Source: Prevotella intermedia ATCC 25611 = DSM 20706
GTDB taxonomy: Bacteria; Bacteroidota; Bacteroidia; Bacteroidales; Bacteroidaceae
Direction: 5' to 3'
Length of the DNA: 64,000 nucleotides
Assembly: GCF_001953955.1 (NCBI RefSeq)
Contig: NZ_CP019301.1
Location: forward strand, 133,501 to 197,500
Shown: positions 38,679 to 59,575 of the stretch, one piece after another
Layout of the letters: every line of letters begins with the position of its first letter
Numbering within the stretch: the first letter of the stretch is position 1
Made by a program: the position numbers and the translations under genes
Notes under the pieces: model-generated
What the model was told of the DNA's origin: nothing
Seen by the model: the letters and a program-made list of their open reading frames with translations, nothing else
The model's database searches: none

Positions 38679-38900
38679 ATAATCTATTTTCCATATAACA
38701 GGCAGCATTAAAAGTCTATATGTTGGGAGCGTGAAATGTTCACGCTCCTATTTTTTTATCACTTACTTGGCAATGCCGTGAATGTGGGGTTGCAACATAA
38801 GCACATAATAGACACACCACAATATAGCAACTATTGGCAGGAAAAAGAAAAACATTGAGGGAATATTTGAGCGTATGGCATAAAAGCGTTACCTTTGCAT

Positions 38901-39164
38901 AAGATAAGCTGCACTCGAACATTCAAGAATAAATTCTTACGTTACTCGTTGGCATTATCTTTGCATAAGATAAGCTGCACTCGAACATTCAAGAATAAAT
39001 TCTTATGTTGCTCGCTGGCGTTATCTTTGCATAAGATAAGCTGCACTCGAACATTCAAGAATGAATTCTTATGTTGCTCGTTGGCATTACCTTTGCATAA
39101 GATAAGCTGCACTCGAACATTTAAGAATGAATTCTTATGTTTCTCGTTGGCATTATCTTTGCAT
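38901..39164 (+). repeat. four tandem 66-bp repeats with promoter -7 boxes
   Basis: Four near-identical units begin at 38901, 38967, 39033 and 39099 (AAGATAAGCTGCACTCGAAC, then attcaagaat.aattctta). Each unit ends in TATCTTTGC or TACCTTTGC, the Bacteroidetes -7 box. As 66 is a multiple of three, a frame stays open through all units (22-residue period HKISCTRTFKNKF...), but this is most likely not a protein. Confidence 0.9.
39154..39161 (+). promoter_or_regulatory. last -7 box of the tandem repeat promoter
   Basis: TATCTTTG closest to the secreted repeat-protein gene, leaving a 5' UTR of about 128 nt. Equivalent boxes end each upstream repeat unit. Confidence 0.6.
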
Positions 39165-39294
39165 ACGCTAAAAAAATCAATATTATGACCTTGTAATAAA
39201 TAAGGTAGAAATTTATTTTAACTTCTCAAACGCCCGCGCCTCCGACACGGCGTTGCTCTGAAAGAGTTTCAACAGGGAGGCACAAGTAAAAACA

Positions 39295-50143: not shown

Positions 50144-50333
50144 TTTTGTAAAGATTATTCTGAAGAAAAACGGCAATTTCGATTTGGCATTGCGAAAGCG
50201 TAGGTTTTGCGATGCAAAACAGCCGCTTTTACCGTGCAAAACCTACGCTTTTGCAACGCAAAACAATAGGTTTTGTAAAGTGTTGATACATAGTTGGTTA
50301 TGCAAAACTTTCACTTGTAAAATTTCTTTACAT
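50144..50333 (+). repeat. dispersed palindromic element, copy H
   Basis: Core order inverted beta (AAAGCGTAGGTTTTGC), alpha, beta, tail. Here the long stem is made by the beta pair instead of the alpha pair, with alpha in the loop. The right end is degenerate (GTAAAATTTCTTTACA). It lies between the KilA-N gene and its decayed copy. Confidence 0.75.
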
Positions 50334-50353
50334 ATTTTTAGCTTGCTTCTTCC

Positions 50354-54281: not shown

Positions 54282-54292
54282 AACCACTCCTA

Positions 54293-54483
54293 TTTTGTAA
54301 AGATAATTCCATAGAAAAACCATAATTTCGATTTTACATTCCAAAAGCGGCTCTTTTGCAACGCAAAAGAGCCGCTTTTACCGTGTAAAACCTACGCTTT
54401 CGCAATGCAAAACAATAGGTTTTACAATGTGCTGATAACGAGATAGTTACGCAATAGTTTTGCTTGTGAAAAATATTTACACC
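54293..54483 (+). repeat. dispersed palindromic element, copy I
   Basis: Core order inverted alpha' (AAAGCGGCTCTTTTGC), loop aac, alpha' (GCAAAAGAGCCGCTTT), beta, tail, end GTGAAAAATATTTACAC. Compared with copy B, both arms have changed together (CTG to CTC, CAG to GAG), a compensatory change that keeps the stem. It ends 85 nt before the CRISPR array. That interval (54484-54568) holds a weak hairpin (GCCTTTT..AAAAGGC) and no gene. Confidence 0.8.
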
Positions 54484-54568: not shown

Positions 54569-55392
54569 GTTGTTTGTGCCTTGCAAACAGCAGGCAGATG
54601 CAACGTGGCGGCGTTAGCATTAATATATTACACCGTTGTTTTTACCTTGCAAACAGCAGGCAGATGCAACTTACTCAGGTAGAATTATTCAAGGTATATG
54701 TTGTTTTTACCTTGCAAACAGCAGGCAGATGCAACGCAGCCAATTTTGAAATCAAACACAATGGCGTTGTTTTTACCTTGCAAACAGCAGGCAGATGCAA
54801 CAAAGAAGCGTAACTCTCTTTTCAAAAGCTCGTTGTTTTTACCTTGCAAACAGCAGGCAGATGCAACACAAAAGAACAACTAAAAAAAAGCGTTGAAGTT
54901 GTTTTTACCTTGCAAACAGCAGGCAGATGCAACTTAACCGATAGAGAGTTATTCTTACTCAGAGTTGTTTTTACCTTGCAAACAGCAGGCAGATGCAACC
55001 AATCGGTAGCTATTGCACCGTCTTAGGTGTTGTTTTTACCTTGCAAACAGCAGGCAGATGCAACTTACAGTATGCTCAAGAAATGGGTTATGAGGTTGTT
55101 TTTACCTTGCAAATAGCAGGCAGATGCAACTGTATTGCAGAACCGACACTTGCGGGTGCAGTTGTTTTTACCTTGCAAATAGCAGGCAGATGCAACCAAA
55201 ACGAACTTTTAAATATAAAATGTCATGTTGTTTGTGCCTTGCAAACAGCAGGCAGATGCAACCTTTTGCAGGTGGTATGATAAGTTTTTTAGTTGTTTTT
55301 ACCTTGCAAACAGCAGGCAGATGCAACTTGAAAATAAAAAACTTAAATTATTAATCGTTGTTTTTACCTTGCAAACAGCAGGCAGATGCCAC
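54569..55392 (-). CRISPR. type VI-B CRISPR array, 13 repeats and 12 spacers
   Basis: 36-nt repeats start at 54569, 54635, 54700, 54766, 54832, 54898, 54964, 55029, 55095, 55161, 55227, 55292 and 55357. Spacers are 29 or 30 nt. On the + strand the repeat begins GTTGTTTTTACC and ends GGCAGATGCAAC; the ends GTTG..CAAC are complementary, as in Cas13b repeats. Variants: TTTGTGCC in repeats 1 and 11, AAATAGC in 9 and 10, and ..GATGCCAC at the end of 13. Read on the minus strand the repeat (GTTGCATCTGCC..AAAAACAAC) agrees with the known Cas13b crRNA orientation, with the repeat 3' of the spacer, so minus-strand transcription is inferred. Only 25 nt separate it from csx28, so a separate leader on that side would have to lie inside csx28. 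Confidence 0.97.
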
Positions 55393-55417
55393 CGCACCTA
55401 ACCTAACTGTCTGATTC

Positions 55418-56023
55418 TTATATGTTTTGTTTCTTTCTTTTCCACCAGTATTTTTTTCCTTTCTTATTATGGTTATATAAATTTCGTTGTTGTAAATCTA
55501 TATCTTTTCTGATTTGTATTGAGAGGCTCTGGTTAATTTCTATCATTTCCTTTACAACCTCCCGATTATGTATCATTATCTTCTCATCAGGGTTGTTCTT
55601 TTCAGCAAGCAAAAGTTTATGAACAAGGGTTCTATATTTAAATATCAGCGACATAACCTCTTTTGATAGATAGATGCCATTGCCTTTGTTGTATACCTCT
55701 TCGGTTAGCTCTTTGAAGAATTGGCGTATATTGGCTTGTCTGAAGTAATAAGTTTTCTCTCCGCCATCCTTAGGCTGTTCCCACACCAGTATGCAGTCGT
55801 CATTTTCTGTGTCTGTGGTAAACCTAAGCAATTTATAAATGCTTTGGTGTGCCTTCAGTATAGCTTCATAGTGCGCACGTTTAATGTTCTCAATACTCTC
55901 TTCACGTAGCTTCTTGATAGCATTGCGATACGTTCGGTAGCCTGCAAAAATGATAGTTGCCGAGCTAAATAAGGAAGTAATTAAAGCAATAATCATATCT
56001 TGTAATATTGATGTACAGTCCAT
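55418..56023 (-). CDS. csx28: Csx28-like membrane HEPN accessory protein
   Basis: 201 residues. One membrane span near the N-terminus (MIIALITSLFSSATIIFAG, residues 10-28), then a basic, mostly helical domain. A divergent HEPN-type R-x4-H motif, RNLYNH, lies at residues 180-185, and a Lys/Trp-rich tail ends the protein. Size, span, motif and position directly behind cas13b match Csx28 of type VI-B2 loci, which enhances Cas13b interference and in a related species forms a membrane pore. It starts 4 nt after the cas13b stop codon. Csx27, the alternative partner, has several membrane spans and represses Cas13b, so it is less likely. Confidence 0.9.
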   Translation of the reverse strand: MDCTSILQDMIIALITSLFSSATIIFAGYRTYRNAIKKLREESIENIKRAHYEAILKAHQSIYKLLRFTTDTENDDCILVWEQPKDGGEKTYYFRQANIRQFFKELTEEVYNKGNGIYLSKEVMSLIFKYRTLVHKLLLAEKNNPDEKIMIHNREVVKEMIEINQSLSIQIRKDIDLQQRNLYNHNKKGKKYWWKRKKQNI

Positions 56024-56027
56024 AATC

Positions 56028-59000
56028 TTATTCTTTAGTTTCTATTGGCTTTTCTATTTCTATTATTTTTTCTATCGTTTTGTGGGTTTTATCCTTCAGC
56101 TGATTGGCAATACCAAGTCCCTTTTCTTCAGAAGTATTAGCAGAAGAAAGGCTGAATGGATTAATGTTTGCGAATGCTATTCTATTGCGCATTGGGTATT
56201 GGTTGTGCGAAAAGGCATTCCGTACGGCAATAAGGAGGTCTACGTCGTTCTGGAAACTTGCTTTGTCTGGCTCGCCTTTGAGTTCCAGCCAATCAGTAAG
56301 CATTTTGTTGAAGTTGTCGGTGTCCAAGCTATTGTATTTGTCTATCAGCGTTTTTTCTAACGCCAACATATCTTTGATAATTTCTATTCTTGCTTTTTGA
56401 TACTCTCCGAGTTCATATTCTACACGCAATTTACTGATAGTATTACTCTTCGATTCTGCTTTAGAAGGAGTTTTAACGAACGAGAATAGACCACCCAATC
56501 TGCGGTCTCTTTCCAAAGCTTTGAAGTTGCCTTGTTTTAAGAGTTTAGTTCCTTTTTCTTCAATGTAAACGGTAAAAAAAGTATTCCTTCTTATCTTCTT
56601 CTTTTTGTTCTTAGAGAAGTTTTCTCTCCCATATACTTTAATAGGTAATCGCATTGGCATTATCCTATTCAGAATATTGTTCTTTTCCTTTATATTCTTT
56701 TCTTCTCCGTTCTTTTCTTCTGTATTTTTTTCTTTTTTTGTTGTATTTGTATTAATATTCTTTAAATATATTTTTTCGACGTTTAGTTCCTTTATCTTCT
56801 TTTTATTAAACAGCTCCATACACAACAACCACGTTACGATGTCTTGGTTTCGCACAAGTCGTAGCTCCCGTTCAAACTTATTCCAAGATTTAAATTCGAG
56901 ATAAGAAGGGTTTTCTTCTTTTTCCTTGTCCGTCATCTTCTTGAACTCGTCTTTCTTCTTACGCAATAGTTCTCTACGTTCCTCACAATTTAAGAAATTC
57001 TTTTCATCGGGTTTGTTTATGTTACCAACGTTAAAATGATAGTTGTAAAATGGCTGTACGCTGTCCTTATATTCTTCACTGAAGAACAAAGGAATTACTT
57101 TTGCAACCAAGCCAACTCTTTTTAACTCGGCTACTGTTATGTTTTCCCGATGCTTCATAAACCATTTCCTTATGGGTTCCGTAAAGATTCCACGTGGTAG
57201 ATTAAAGCCGTTCTTCCACCCTTGCACCAATGTTTTGGGCTTGGTCTTTGGCTCTTTAAGCTTAAGGAAGTATTGGTTCTTCTCCCAATCTTCTGGCTTT
57301 AGACTTTCAAGAAAGTTTTTCTTTGCTTCCAAATAGCTGCGATAGAAAGACAAGATATTGTTGCACTTTTCCCACTCGGTATCCTTCAAGAATGGGTGAG
57401 GGTTGCTACTCTCTATGAGCTTCGTTTGTTTGAAGTAAGGGGCAAGGCGTTCGTGTTCGCTGCCGAAGAATGCAAGCGTACGTTGCAACAGCTGATATTC
57501 TGTGCTGTTGGCTTTACTGTTGTTCAGTGGTTTGCCCTCATTGTCTTTTTGAACAGGCTGAAAACGCATCATATCGTTTACCAACCAGCTGGCAATCTTG
57601 CCAGATTTCAATGAGCTGTTCTTTCTTTCAACGTTTTCTATCTCTTCATTTATTTGATTATCAAGAGATTCAAGGCTCTTTTGGACATCAACTAACATTT
57701 CTTCTTGTTTGCGTTCCGCCTCTGTTGCCATAACTTTATGCTCATCTTTCAATATGGCAATCATTTGTTTGGGCAGATGTCCTATTTCAATATCTTTGCC
57801 TTTACAGTATTCTTCTAACTCGTCTATGCTTTTTATCTCACCATTGGCAAAAGTATCGTAAAGAGCATATATTTCTGTTATTTTATTCTCAATGATTTCT
57901 TCTATCTTATGTTTTTCCTGTTTATCGTTTTTATTTTCTTTCTTCTTTGTTTCTATTTCATTGTCATTATCAGTGTTTTCCGTCTTTAACAACAGATAGT
58001 AGAACATCATTGGCAATAGTTCGTGTACACTTAGGAAAGCCTCTGCTTGGAATGATTTATCAAGTTTATACTTACTTTTTTCATTCTTTTCGCTATTTGT
58101 TTTGAGCGATGGCCAAATTTTATCGTTATCATTCCTAAATCTAATGCCTATCTTTTGGTTCTCCAAATGATAATGCGGTGTGGTTTCTGGGATATACGGC
58201 TCTTTTGAAGTTTCGAAAGAGTTGAAAGTCTTTACAAATTTTCTCCATTCATCGGGGCGATTCTGCTTGGTAAATTCTTGTATGCGTTCAAAACCATACA
58301 GCTTATGCGTAAGATGATGGCTTTCTTTATAATCACCGATTTGTTTCTTATAAATGGAGAAGTGATAGGTGCCCAAGTCTATTTGGAAACGAAGATTTGT
58401 GAATATCTCGTTATAGTCGAAATAGCGCAATGCAAAGTAAGGGAAACGGTCTTGGTGTCTTACCAATGTGTTTTTGAAAGGCTCTTGCTCTGCGTCGTAG
58501 TCTTCGTCTGCGATTTCGATGGGAACTCTGAACTTTTCTCTGTCCTCTTCTCGCAGGCGTTCGTACAGCGATTTGGGGCAACGTATCAGCTCGTTGAGCA
58601 TATCGAGCAATATCCAGTCTTGTGTTTGTGTGCTTTGCAATCGTAGTTTTGGCAAGAGCATTCGGCTCCTGCAAAACACTTCATTGGTCATTTTCTTTTT
58701 GTTTTCCCTATTGTCTTTAAAGCCTCTAAGCTTTTGCTGCATCCATATTGCATCTTTCTTTTCAAGGAATAAGGATACAAAGAAGAGCAAACCACTTTCA
58801 GTTATGTTTCCTTCGTTATCTTTTGTAAAATAATAATTGAATTCTTCTTCTGTTCTGTCAAGATGCTTGAAGTCTTCGTCAGGGTTTATATCTTTGTTAT
58901 ATTGGTAATCTTCTTTTACTAAGCGGATACTTGCGTTAAAGATATTATACATCTTTTCCAATAATCCTTCCTCAAACTTTGGTCTTTCTAAAGATTTAGA

Positions 59001-59408
59001 ATGCTTGTAGTGGGAATAATGATTTCTTAGGTCTCGAAGTTTATATATAAAAACAAAAAAAGACTTTCTCAGACTTTCAAGAGATTGGGCTTCGGCTTGT
59101 TTCTCTTCTTTTTGTTTTGTGGTATCGGTAGGATTCAGTCGATATGTCGCAGCTTCCAAGAATGGGAAGTGTTTTATTATCAGTTTGCTTAGTCGGTCTT
59201 TCTTATTAATATCTTTAATTTCGTTCCAAGTATTCTTAAGGGTAGTTTCGTATCCGTCACGGTTGATTTCGCCTTCTTCCAGTATCTTGTTAATGTGGTT
59301 CACTGTAATATAGACATTGTGGCGTGCCAAATTAAGGAACGCCGCCCAAAAATGCTTATCTTTTAACTCGTAGCGAATTGAGTCTGTGGTTTTCTTGTCG
59401 TCTTCCAT
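56028..59408 (-). CDS. cas13b: Cas13b, RNA-guided RNA nuclease
   Basis: 1126 residues from ATG 59408; a GTG two codons earlier (59414) is possible. Single effector of type VI-B CRISPR: it processes its crRNA and cuts target RNA, then nearby RNA, with two HEPN domains. Both R-x4-H catalytic motifs are present: RNHYSH (Arg128, His133) near the N-terminus and RNAFSH (Arg1063, His1068) near the C-terminus, the placement typical of Cas13b. The middle matches family blocks I recall (AEAFLSVHELLPMMFYYLLL; GWKNGFNLPRGIF; ERELRLVRNQDIVTWL). Two Lys/Glu/Asn-rich low-complexity stretches (about 490-515 and 900-925) look like insertions relative to shorter homologues. Clearly more AT-rich than neighbouring genes, which suggests acquisition. 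No cas1 or cas2 is nearby. Confidence 0.97.
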   Translation of the reverse strand: MEDDKKTTDSIRYELKDKHFWAAFLNLARHNVYITVNHINKILEEGEINRDGYETTLKNTWNEIKDINKKDRLSKLIIKHFPFLEAATYRLNPTDTTKQKEEKQAEAQSLESLRKSFFVFIYKLRDLRNHYSHYKHSKSLERPKFEEGLLEKMYNIFNASIRLVKEDYQYNKDINPDEDFKHLDRTEEEFNYYFTKDNEGNITESGLLFFVSLFLEKKDAIWMQQKLRGFKDNRENKKKMTNEVFCRSRMLLPKLRLQSTQTQDWILLDMLNELIRCPKSLYERLREEDREKFRVPIEIADEDYDAEQEPFKNTLVRHQDRFPYFALRYFDYNEIFTNLRFQIDLGTYHFSIYKKQIGDYKESHHLTHKLYGFERIQEFTKQNRPDEWRKFVKTFNSFETSKEPYIPETTPHYHLENQKIGIRFRNDNDKIWPSLKTNSEKNEKSKYKLDKSFQAEAFLSVHELLPMMFYYLLLKTENTDNDNEIETKKKENKNDKQEKHKIEEIIENKITEIYALYDTFANGEIKSIDELEEYCKGKDIEIGHLPKQMIAILKDEHKVMATEAERKQEEMLVDVQKSLESLDNQINEEIENVERKNSSLKSGKIASWLVNDMMRFQPVQKDNEGKPLNNSKANSTEYQLLQRTLAFFGSEHERLAPYFKQTKLIESSNPHPFLKDTEWEKCNNILSFYRSYLEAKKNFLESLKPEDWEKNQYFLKLKEPKTKPKTLVQGWKNGFNLPRGIFTEPIRKWFMKHRENITVAELKRVGLVAKVIPLFFSEEYKDSVQPFYNYHFNVGNINKPDEKNFLNCEERRELLRKKKDEFKKMTDKEKEENPSYLEFKSWNKFERELRLVRNQDIVTWLLCMELFNKKKIKELNVEKIYLKNINTNTTKKEKNTEEKNGEEKNIKEKNNILNRIMPMRLPIKVYGRENFSKNKKKKIRRNTFFTVYIEEKGTKLLKQGNFKALERDRRLGGLFSFVKTPSKAESKSNTISKLRVEYELGEYQKARIEIIKDMLALEKTLIDKYNSLDTDNFNKMLTDWLELKGEPDKASFQNDVDLLIAVRNAFSHNQYPMRNRIAFANINPFSLSSANTSEEKGLGIANQLKDKTHKTIEKIIEIEKPIETKE

Positions 59409-59451
59409 TTTCACTATGTATGATTTTATTTTAATATTTTATAAAGGCTTG

Positions 59452-59575
59452 AGCAATGGTAAATTGCTTAGGTTCTTGCCCAATTGTAAAACTCGCCTGT
59501 CTTAGCATTGCGATGTAAGAACGGCGAATGATACAACTGATATGGCAAAGATACAAATAAAATCAGATAAACAAA
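59452..59575 (-). promoter_or_regulatory. promoter and 5' UTR hairpin of cas13b-csx28
   Basis: On the minus strand TTTG (59572-59575), an 18-nt spacer, then TATCTTTG (59546-59553). The predicted 5' UTR is about 130 nt and holds a small hairpin (AGCAAT/ATTGCT, 59452-59468). The bases from 59576 to 59687 contain no gene that I can support. Confidence 0.7.

What the first reader, a model, noticed from the sequence alone, without database searches (positions are those of the whole stretch)
54569..59408. Complete type VI-B2 RNA-targeting CRISPR locus (Cas13b, Csx28, array) without adaptation genes
A 1126-residue protein carries two HEPN R-x4-H motifs close to its two ends (128-133 and 1063-1068) and no DNA-nuclease motif. 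It is followed 4 nt later by a one-span membrane protein with a divergent R-x4-H motif, and 25 nt later by a 13-repeat array. The order, spacing and repeat ends (GTTG..CAAC) are those known for Cas13b/Csx28 systems. cas1 and cas2 are absent from at least 50 kb on one side and about 4.6 kb on the other, so new spacers must be acquired in trans or not at all.
Basis: partly seen in the sequence, partly recalled or inferred. Interest (0 to 1): 0.95.

Follow-up and report, generated by a model that had tools for sequence, protein, structure and literature searches.

The report
RNA-cutting CRISPR without spacer-writing genes
A Prevotella bacterium carries a complete Cas13b/Csx28 CRISPR locus with a 12-spacer memory, one spacer exactly matching a phage gene in the direction that would let its RNA guide pair with that gene's messenger; the locus has no spacer-writing genes of its own and likely borrows those of the Cas9 system found elsewhere in the same genome.

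Summary
Window 54569-59408 (minus strand) encodes Cas13b (NCBIfam 983 bits, cut-off 150), Csx28 (277, cut-off 50) and a 13-repeat, 12-spacer array: a canonical type VI-B2 locus, a new member of a known kind. Its Csx28 lacks the family's R-x4-H (present in 51 of 59) and bears another one further on. Cas1 and Cas2 are absent in cis; the genome's only copies sit in a Cas9 (II-C) locus on the other contig. VI-B spacers (29-30 nt) have the II-C length, the repeats share a 20-nt end, and only 1 of 12 spacers is shared with the 91%-identical P. pallens locus. Trans adaptation by II-C Cas1-Cas2, shown by others in Flavobacterium columnare, is the best reading here. Spacer 10 matches two viral contigs 30/30, antisense to a phage ORF; 10 of 12 spacers score as antisense to coding sequence, against 18 of 38 in the II-C array. 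The larger surprise lies in relatives: two Prevotella genomes carry Cas13b beside RT-Cas1, Cas2 and a VI-B array, which I did not find reported for VI-B, and VI-B arrays of the genus fall into two spacer-length classes, as if written by two machines.

The parts
56028..59408 (-). cas13b, 1126 aa, two HEPN motifs (residues 128-133 and 1063-1068)
   Evidence: NF038190 983 bits vs cut-off 150; PADLOC Cas13b; PDB 6dtd 1269 bits; motifs
55418..56023 (-). csx28, 201 aa; family motif R159-x4-H164 replaced by E and N, another R-x4-H at 180-185
   Evidence: NF040556 277 bits vs cut-off 50; PADLOC Csx28/tm_HEPN; PDB 8gi1 E 1.1e-53; motif
54569..55392 (-). CRISPR array, 13 repeats of 36 nt (crRNA-sense GTTGCATCTGCCTGCTGTTTGCAAGGTAAAAACAAC), 12 spacers of 29-30 nt
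   Evidence: the crRNA strand is taken from recalled Cas13b repeats and the gene direction
55357..55392 (-). repeat next to csx28 with one change found in no other repeat of this array, GTTGC to GTGGC, which removes the outer stem in the predicted fold; also the first repeat in P. pallens
55372..55413 (-). predicted leader / first-repeat hairpin (18 pairs, -23.0 kcal/mol)
   Evidence: prediction only, 29 of 200 shuffled leaders give as many pairs
54736..54765 (-). spacer 10: 30/30 in two viral contigs, antisense to a ~565-aa phage ORF
55131..55160 (-). spacer 4: 29/30 to lipA of a related Prevotella (27/30 to this genome's own lipA), same sense as the mRNA
54868..54897 (-). spacer 8: the only spacer shared (26/30) with the P. 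pallens array
55065..55094 (-). spacer 5: 20-nt core found in one viral contig (24/30 overall), antisense to a 1055-aa ORF that looks like a tape-measure gene; weak

Best explanation
This is a complete type VI-B2 CRISPR locus, encoding a Cas13b with both HEPN motifs, a Csx28 homologue and a 12-spacer array, which is predicted to cut RNA of invading phages with guides that were likely written into the array by the Cas1-Cas2 of a Cas9 (II-C) system on the genome's other contig. Shown: the genes, the motifs, the array, the absence of cas1/cas2 in cis and their single occurrence in the II-C locus, the exact match of spacer 10 to two viral contigs in antisense orientation, and the different spacer content relative to P. 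pallens. Inferred: (1) the array is transcribed from the csx28 side and Cas13b processes it to spacer-repeat crRNAs; (2) a crRNA pairing with phage mRNA activates the HEPN nuclease; (3) Csx28 then acts at the membrane to strengthen defence, as reported for its homologue; (4) the II-C integrase inserts ~30-bp pieces of DNA at the VI-B array, and selection keeps mainly those whose crRNA is complementary to mRNA.
For: Profiles and PDB-sequence matches. HEPN R/H conserved (18 of 18 and 19 of 19). II-C locus: Cas9 523 bits, type II Cas1 319 bits, Cas2 65 bits; only cas1 and only cas2 of the genome. Spacer length: VI-B 30 nt in 8, 29 in 4 of 12; II-C 30 nt in 35 of 40, 29-31 in the rest. Repeat ends: 20-nt local match, 2 of 5000 shuffles as good. 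Turnover: 1 of 12 spacers shared with P. pallens although the locus is 91% identical. Seven of 9 Prevotella genomes in the two short-spacer Cas13b clades have II-C against 1 of 9 others (Fisher p 0.015). Orientation: VI-B spacers score antisense to coding in 166 of 216 (own 10 of 12) against 45 of 91 II-C spacers, p 4e-6; composition-shuffled VI-B spacers reach at most 0.690 against 0.773. Precedent: F. columnare VI-B needs II-C cas1 (PMC8092290; outline, passages, sections 9 and 11 seen).
Against: P. pallens (G383) and G060 have short-spacer VI-B arrays but no detected cas1, so a resident II-C is not needed to keep such an array. The shared repeat end may be common descent: P. pallens has nearly the same VI-B repeat without II-C. 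II-C repeats are 47 nt and VI-B 36, an objection raised in PMC8092290. G017 and G143 have further cas1 genes besides II-C, and absence of cas1 in G023 (56% complete) and G238 (86%) is weak. Spacer 4 is sense to lipA. Eight viral scans, one core each, gave hits for 2 of 8 spacers. Counting open frames alone shows no strand bias (10 against 8 discordant), and one small II-C array (G336) scored 6 of 7 antisense. No expression or activity data.
Confidence: 0.75

Rival explanations
1. The locus arrived by horizontal transfer and its array is a frozen heirloom: it still makes crRNAs but no longer gains spacers, and the resident II-C Cas1-Cas2 does not serve it.
For: The P. pallens locus is 91% identical while two neighbouring genes of the window are 74-77% identical there and lie at other places, so the locus moves; P. 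pallens has the system without any detected cas1; II-C adaptation in Riemerella did not feed its VI-B array according to PMC8092290 (section 11).
Against: 11 of 12 spacers are not shared with the P. pallens array, though this dates no gain to the present host; 7 of 9 short-spacer VI-B genomes have II-C.
Confidence: 0.2
2. The array was written by another machine: an RT-Cas1 module once in cis, as seen in two related genomes, or a type I or III integrase.
For: Two Prevotella genomes carry RT-Cas1 and Cas2 beside Cas13b.
Against: Spacers here are 29-30 nt; the two RT-Cas1 VI-B arrays have 31-37 nt and arrays beside other RT-Cas1 genes mostly 31-38 nt; no RT-Cas1 match in this genome.
Confidence: 0.05
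3. The array serves host regulation rather than defence, with guides such as spacer 4 acting on host transcripts.
For: Spacer 4 matches host-type lipA.
Against: Its crRNA has the same sense as lipA mRNA and 3 mismatches to the own gene, so it would not pair with the mRNA; the next best own-genome match of the array outside itself has E 0.08; spacer 10 matches phage contigs exactly.
Confidence: 0.03

Closest known systems
Type VI-B2 Cas13b/Csx28 systems (PDB 6dtd Cas13b; 8gi1 Csx28)
   Same: Both proteins over nearly full length, gene order, 36-nt repeats, no cas1/cas2 in cis
   Different: Own spacer set; Csx28 has lost the family R-x4-H (E159, N164) that 8gi1 has (RMKKIH) and carries one at 180-185; repeat next to csx28 reads GTGGC
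Flavobacterium columnare VI-B fed by II-C Cas1 in trans (Hoikkala 2021, PMC8092290)
   Same: VI-B without cas1/cas2 and a II-C in one genome, mostly 30-nt spacers in both arrays, shared leader-distal repeat end, a self-type spacer that does not target mRNA
   Different: Repeats here are 36 and 47 nt (36 and 36 there); no experiment here
P. gingivalis VI-B2 leader-repeat hairpin (PMC13187072)
   Same: Predicted pairing of leader with first repeat
   Different: Here only a prediction, seen in 3 of 6 loci of this Cas13b clade and not clearly beyond shuffled leaders in pair count
Type VI-A with RT-Cas1 (Toro 2019, PMC6753606)
   Same: Cas13 effector with RT-Cas1 and Cas2, as in relatives L072 and L073
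   Different: Those are Cas13a; that paper reports none among 236 Cas13b

Membership tests
Type VI-B (Cas13b) | Effector matches the Cas13b family over its length | tested here: met
   NF038190 983 bits, residues 15-1114
Type VI-B (Cas13b) | Two HEPN R-x4-H motifs near the termini | tested here: met
   128-133 and 1063-1068, conserved in 18/18 and 19/19
Type VI-B (Cas13b) | RNA-guided RNase, crRNA with 3' repeat | not testable with these tools
   needs small-RNA sequencing and assay
Variant VI-B2 | csx28 next to cas13b | tested here: met
   NF040556 277 bits, 4-nt gap
Csx28 family | R-x4-H at the family position (R159-H164; not a criterion of the NCBIfam model) | tested here: not met
   E159 and N164 here; R and H in 51 of 59; membership rests on the whole-length profile and 8gi1 matches
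Type VI-B | cas1/cas2 absent from the locus (usual, not required) | tested here: met
   single genome copies on the other contig
II-C (partner locus) | cas9, type II cas1, cas2, no csn2 or cas4 | tested here: met
   TIGR01865, TIGR03639, TIGR01573; absence of csn2/cas4 judged from the ORF list only
Trans adaptation by II-C | Equal spacer length in both arrays | tested here: met
   29-30 against 29-31, mode 30 in both
Trans adaptation by II-C | Similar repeat ends | tested here: inconclusive
   20-nt match, 2 of 5000 shuffles, but a near-identical VI-B repeat exists in a genome without detected cas1
Trans adaptation by II-C | Shared protospacer motif | not tested
   only one secure phage protospacer
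Trans adaptation by II-C | Loss of VI-B acquisition in a cas1 mutant | not testable with these tools
   experiment
Leader-repeat hairpin of type VI | First repeat pairs with leader rather than itself | tested here: inconclusive
   18 pairs, but 29 of 200 shuffled leaders reach that; whole 124-nt fold beaten by 2 of 200 shuffles

The most novel reading that the evidence does not exclude
In Prevotella, Cas13b immunity has no fixed spacer-writer: VI-B arrays are written by two interchangeable machines, a II-C Cas1-Cas2 borrowed in trans (29-30-nt spacers, as in the window) or a captured RT-Cas1-Cas2 (31-38-nt spacers). The RT branch is a VI-B/RT system that can write spacers from RNA into an RNA-targeting CRISPR, and one array (G212) records a switch from one writer to the other.
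Probability: 0.5. Interest if true: 0.85.

Novelty: new member of a known kind. Interest (0 to 1): 0.55.

Why it matters
How RNA-targeting type VI-B systems gain spacers without cas1/cas2 has, in what I read, been answered by experiment in one fish pathogen, and its authors doubted that it holds elsewhere because repeat lengths differ. Here spacer length may serve as a fingerprint of the writing enzyme: the window's VI-B array has the II-C length, while a sister branch has the length of RT-Cas1 arrays and in two genomes carries RT-Cas1 itself. That makes the question testable by removing one gene or by sequencing strains. The orientation test needs no known target: VI-B arrays look filtered for guides that pair with mRNA, II-C arrays as a group do not. 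The window's Csx28 is also a natural variant without the family R-x4-H, useful for asking whether that motif matters.
Full report
What is there. The window lies at 133501-197500 of contig C2 (0.71 Mb) of a two-contig, 2.67-Mb genome. It belongs to the genus of P. pallens: G383, listed as same genus, has a contig of the same length as P. pallens ATCC 700821. I did not fix the species. On the minus strand, 59408-56028 encodes a 1126-aa protein, 56023-55418 a 201-aa protein, and 55392-54569 an array of 13 repeats of 36 nt with 12 spacers of 29-30 nt. The gaps are 4 and 25 nt. The repeat (up to 3 mismatches) occurs 13 times in the genome, all here.

Identity. The large protein is Cas13b (NF038190, 983 bits against a cut-off of 150; nearest PDB sequence 6dtd, 1269 bits). 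The small one is Csx28 (277 bits against 50; PDB 8gi1, E 1.1e-53). HEPN residues R128/H133 align in 18 of 18 Cas13b proteins (a nineteenth is truncated there) and R1063/H1068 in 19 of 19. Csx28 was aligned with 58 of the 64 relatives listed (left out: the 100% copy and five shorter or partial matches). The family's R-x4-H is R159-H164, present in 51 of 59 and seen in the solved 8gi1 sequence (RMKKIH). Whether the later motif replaces the earlier one is open.

Adaptation genes. The genome has one cas1 and one cas2, both in a II-C locus on contig C1: Cas9 (523 bits), type II Cas1 (319 bits), Cas2, with an array of 41-42 repeats of 47 nt interrupted by an IS982 transposase gene. Its spacers are 30 nt in 35 of 40, otherwise 29 or 31; the VI-B spacers are 30 nt in 8 and 29 in 4 of 12. 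The last 20 nt of the two repeats align with one gap; 2 of 5000 shuffled repeats do as well. In F. columnare, VI-B acquisition depends on II-C Cas1, both arrays take mostly 30-bp spacers, and the repeats of nine species share the leader-distal end (PMC8092290; outline, passages and sections 9 and 11 seen). The same paper doubts that other species do this because their repeat lengths differ, as here.

Turnover and transfer. P. pallens ATCC 700821 (L013, G383) has the nearest locus: 91% identical DNA over 54696-59572, Cas13b 92% and Csx28 100% identical. Two neighbouring genes of the window are only 74-77% identical there and lie elsewhere. This points to horizontal transfer. In another relative, G017, the locus sits beside the same neighbours (84-93% identical) but is itself only 76% identical, which also fits replacement. 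Of 12 spacers, one (spacer 8, 26/30) is shared with the ten P. pallens spacers, seven of them different. Spacer content has thus changed since the loci parted, in one or both lineages. P. pallens has no detected cas1.

Targets. Spacer 10 matches two of six viral contigs found with its core at 30/30 and the other four with 2-4 mismatches, in each case antisense to a frame of 555-567 aa. Spacer 5 has a 20-nt core match in one viral contig, 24/30 overall, antisense to a 1055-aa frame; this is weak. Six further cores gave nothing; four spacers were not scanned. Spacer 4 reads as the LipA motif CTRKCRFCNT: 29/30 in G017, 28/30 in a P. nigrescens replicon annotated lipA, 27/30 in the own genome. It has the sense of the mRNA and would not pair with it; F. 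columnare self spacers are likewise biased away from mRNA.

Orientation without known targets. A codon model trained on half of 195 ORFs of at least 300 aa calls the strand of held-out 30-nt coding pieces correctly in 72%. It calls VI-B spacers antisense to coding in 166 of 216 (16 of 16 array means positive; window 10 of 12) and II-C spacers in 45 of 91 (window genome 18 of 38; G336 6 of 7 is the exception) (Fisher p 4e-6). A type I array of G124 gives 31 of 57 (type judged by eye). Shuffling letters within VI-B spacers gives 0.603 on average and at most 0.690 in 200 rounds, against 0.773 with a model retrained on 180 ORFs. The rate is about what the model gives on pure antisense pieces, so nearly all VI-B spacers may be antisense (inference). 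The test is imperfect: it calls lipA spacer 4 antisense, weakly, where the match shows sense. Counting open frames alone shows nothing (10 against 8). The 216 are the different spacers among 219 extracted.

Two length classes. In 398 genus genomes Cas13b passes its cut-off in 18. Eight VI-B arrays (window, G383, G017, G336, G167, G235, G143, G060) have 57 spacers of 29-31 nt; the arrays of G124 and G293 have 35 of 31-37 nt; G072, G205, G264, G023, G337 have 115, of which 114 are 31-38 nt and one is 27. Two of the 18 (G289, G238) gave no array. On the Cas13b tree each class needs 2 changes against 6.4-6.6 in shuffles. G212 has both classes in one array: six spacers of 29-30 nt between leader-proximal repeats of one variant, six of 32-36 nt between leader-distal repeats of another; a 35-nt spacer between a degenerate repeat and the first of these breaks the pattern, and the leader side is inferred from the assumed direction. 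II-C lies in 7 of 9 genomes of the two short-spacer clades and 1 of 9 others (in the relatives Cas9 was judged by ORF start, size and position, not by profile).

VI-B with RT-Cas1. G293 (L073) has, on one strand, cas13b, a 475-aa and a 154-aa gene, RT-cas1 (757 aa), cas2 and a VI-B array. G124 (L072) has cas13b and a 487-aa gene facing RT-cas1 and cas2, with the array before RT-cas1. Profiles confirm RT, Cas1, Cas2 and Cas13b. The two RT-Cas1 are 43% identical and are the only Cas1 frames above 700 aa among the matches listed for 398 genomes. In a sample of 399 genomes of the family, 7 have RT-Cas1 relatives; stretches around six of them (G506 is on a 3.4-kb contig) hold no Cas13b match, and several have type III-like neighbours by eye. 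Arrays in those stretches have mostly 31-38-nt spacers, like the long VI-B class; two (in L146, L149) read longer because the repeat was called short, and L148 has one of 30. Toro 2019 found RT-Cas1 only with Cas13a, none among 236 Cas13b (PMC6753606, passages), and a figure legend of the 2025 classification names cas1/cas2 for a subset of VI-A and VI-D loci only (PMC12669027, passages). My literature searches (5 of 5 papers listed; 15 of 38; 20 of 57) showed no report of it for VI-B in titles, abstract starts or the passages I opened; the library holds open-licence papers only. The 120 listed relatives of the G293 protein are 71-97% identical, one named from a Prevotella MAG; their gene neighbours are unknown.

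First repeat and leader. The repeat next to csx28 differs by one base (GTGGC), which removes the outer stem of the repeat in the predicted fold, and the leader can pair with it over 18 pairs, as in P. gingivalis VI-B2 (PMC13187072, passages). Of six loci of this Cas13b clade (csx28 found in five, not in G167), the window, P. pallens and G336 show 18 pairs and G017, G167 and H. pleuritidis 3-8; shuffled leaders reach the count in 29, 17 and 35 of 200 for the first three, so this stays a suggestion. The long-clade locus G293 pairs over 24 with 0 of 200.

Verdict. An ordinary, apparently intact VI-B2 locus in a Prevotella genome, most likely working by RNA-guided RNA cleavage with Csx28 at the membrane (a pore according to a passage of PMC12669027; the primary paper was not held) and fed in trans by II-C. 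The unusual part is in its relatives.

Noticed in passing
L072:5384-14096 and L073:3586-14904: Cas13b next to an RT-Cas1 fusion, Cas2 and a VI-B array in two Prevotella genomes (G124, G293): a VI-B system with its own reverse-transcriptase-bearing spacer-writing module.
   Followed up: partly
L083 (G212), array on the minus strand at about L083:3709-4978: One VI-B array with a sharp switch: one run of repeats carries 29-30-nt spacers, the next run, of another repeat variant, carries 32-36-nt spacers.
   Followed up: partly
window 55418-56023 (Csx28): Family R-x4-H (R159-H164) lost together with gain of R180-x4-H185, in the same 5 of 59 proteins; identical protein in P. pallens ATCC 700821.
   Followed up: partly
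L073:8936-10360, L072:8842-10302 and relatives in L089, L083, L084, L086, L087, L088: Large genes beside long-spacer Cas13b, in two sequence families of 4 genomes each, with predicted membrane spans in the two examined; weak CorA profile hits and a 475-aa model (pLDDT 83) whose first 15 Foldseek rows are 14 CorA chains and CmaX, best E 2.4e-3.
   Followed up: partly
window 55131-55160: Spacer 4 derives from lipA, closest to another Prevotella genome rather than the own gene, in the orientation that cannot pair with the mRNA.
   Followed up: yes
L010:4421-8579: The II-C array of the same genome is interrupted by an IS982 transposase gene.
   Followed up: no
L074 (G383, P. pallens) array: Repeats of two main variants and tandem copies of two spacers (three and two copies) in a genome without detected cas1.
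   Followed up: no
window 50144-50343 and 54292-54482: A dispersed ~190-nt element, also at L011:16838-17028 and in more than 30 places in G017.
   Followed up: no
window 13659, 16051, 23634, 38546, 50205 and others: Short arrays of 22-nt units around TTTTGCAATGCAAAACAGACGC, recurring through the window.
   Followed up: no
window 38889-39165: A 66-nt tandem repeat, 4.2 copies, 94% matches; not examined.
   Followed up: no
L098 (G143) array: An array with type III-like neighbours (judged by eye) is as strongly strand-biased as VI-B arrays (11 of 13 one way, array direction unknown).
   Followed up: no
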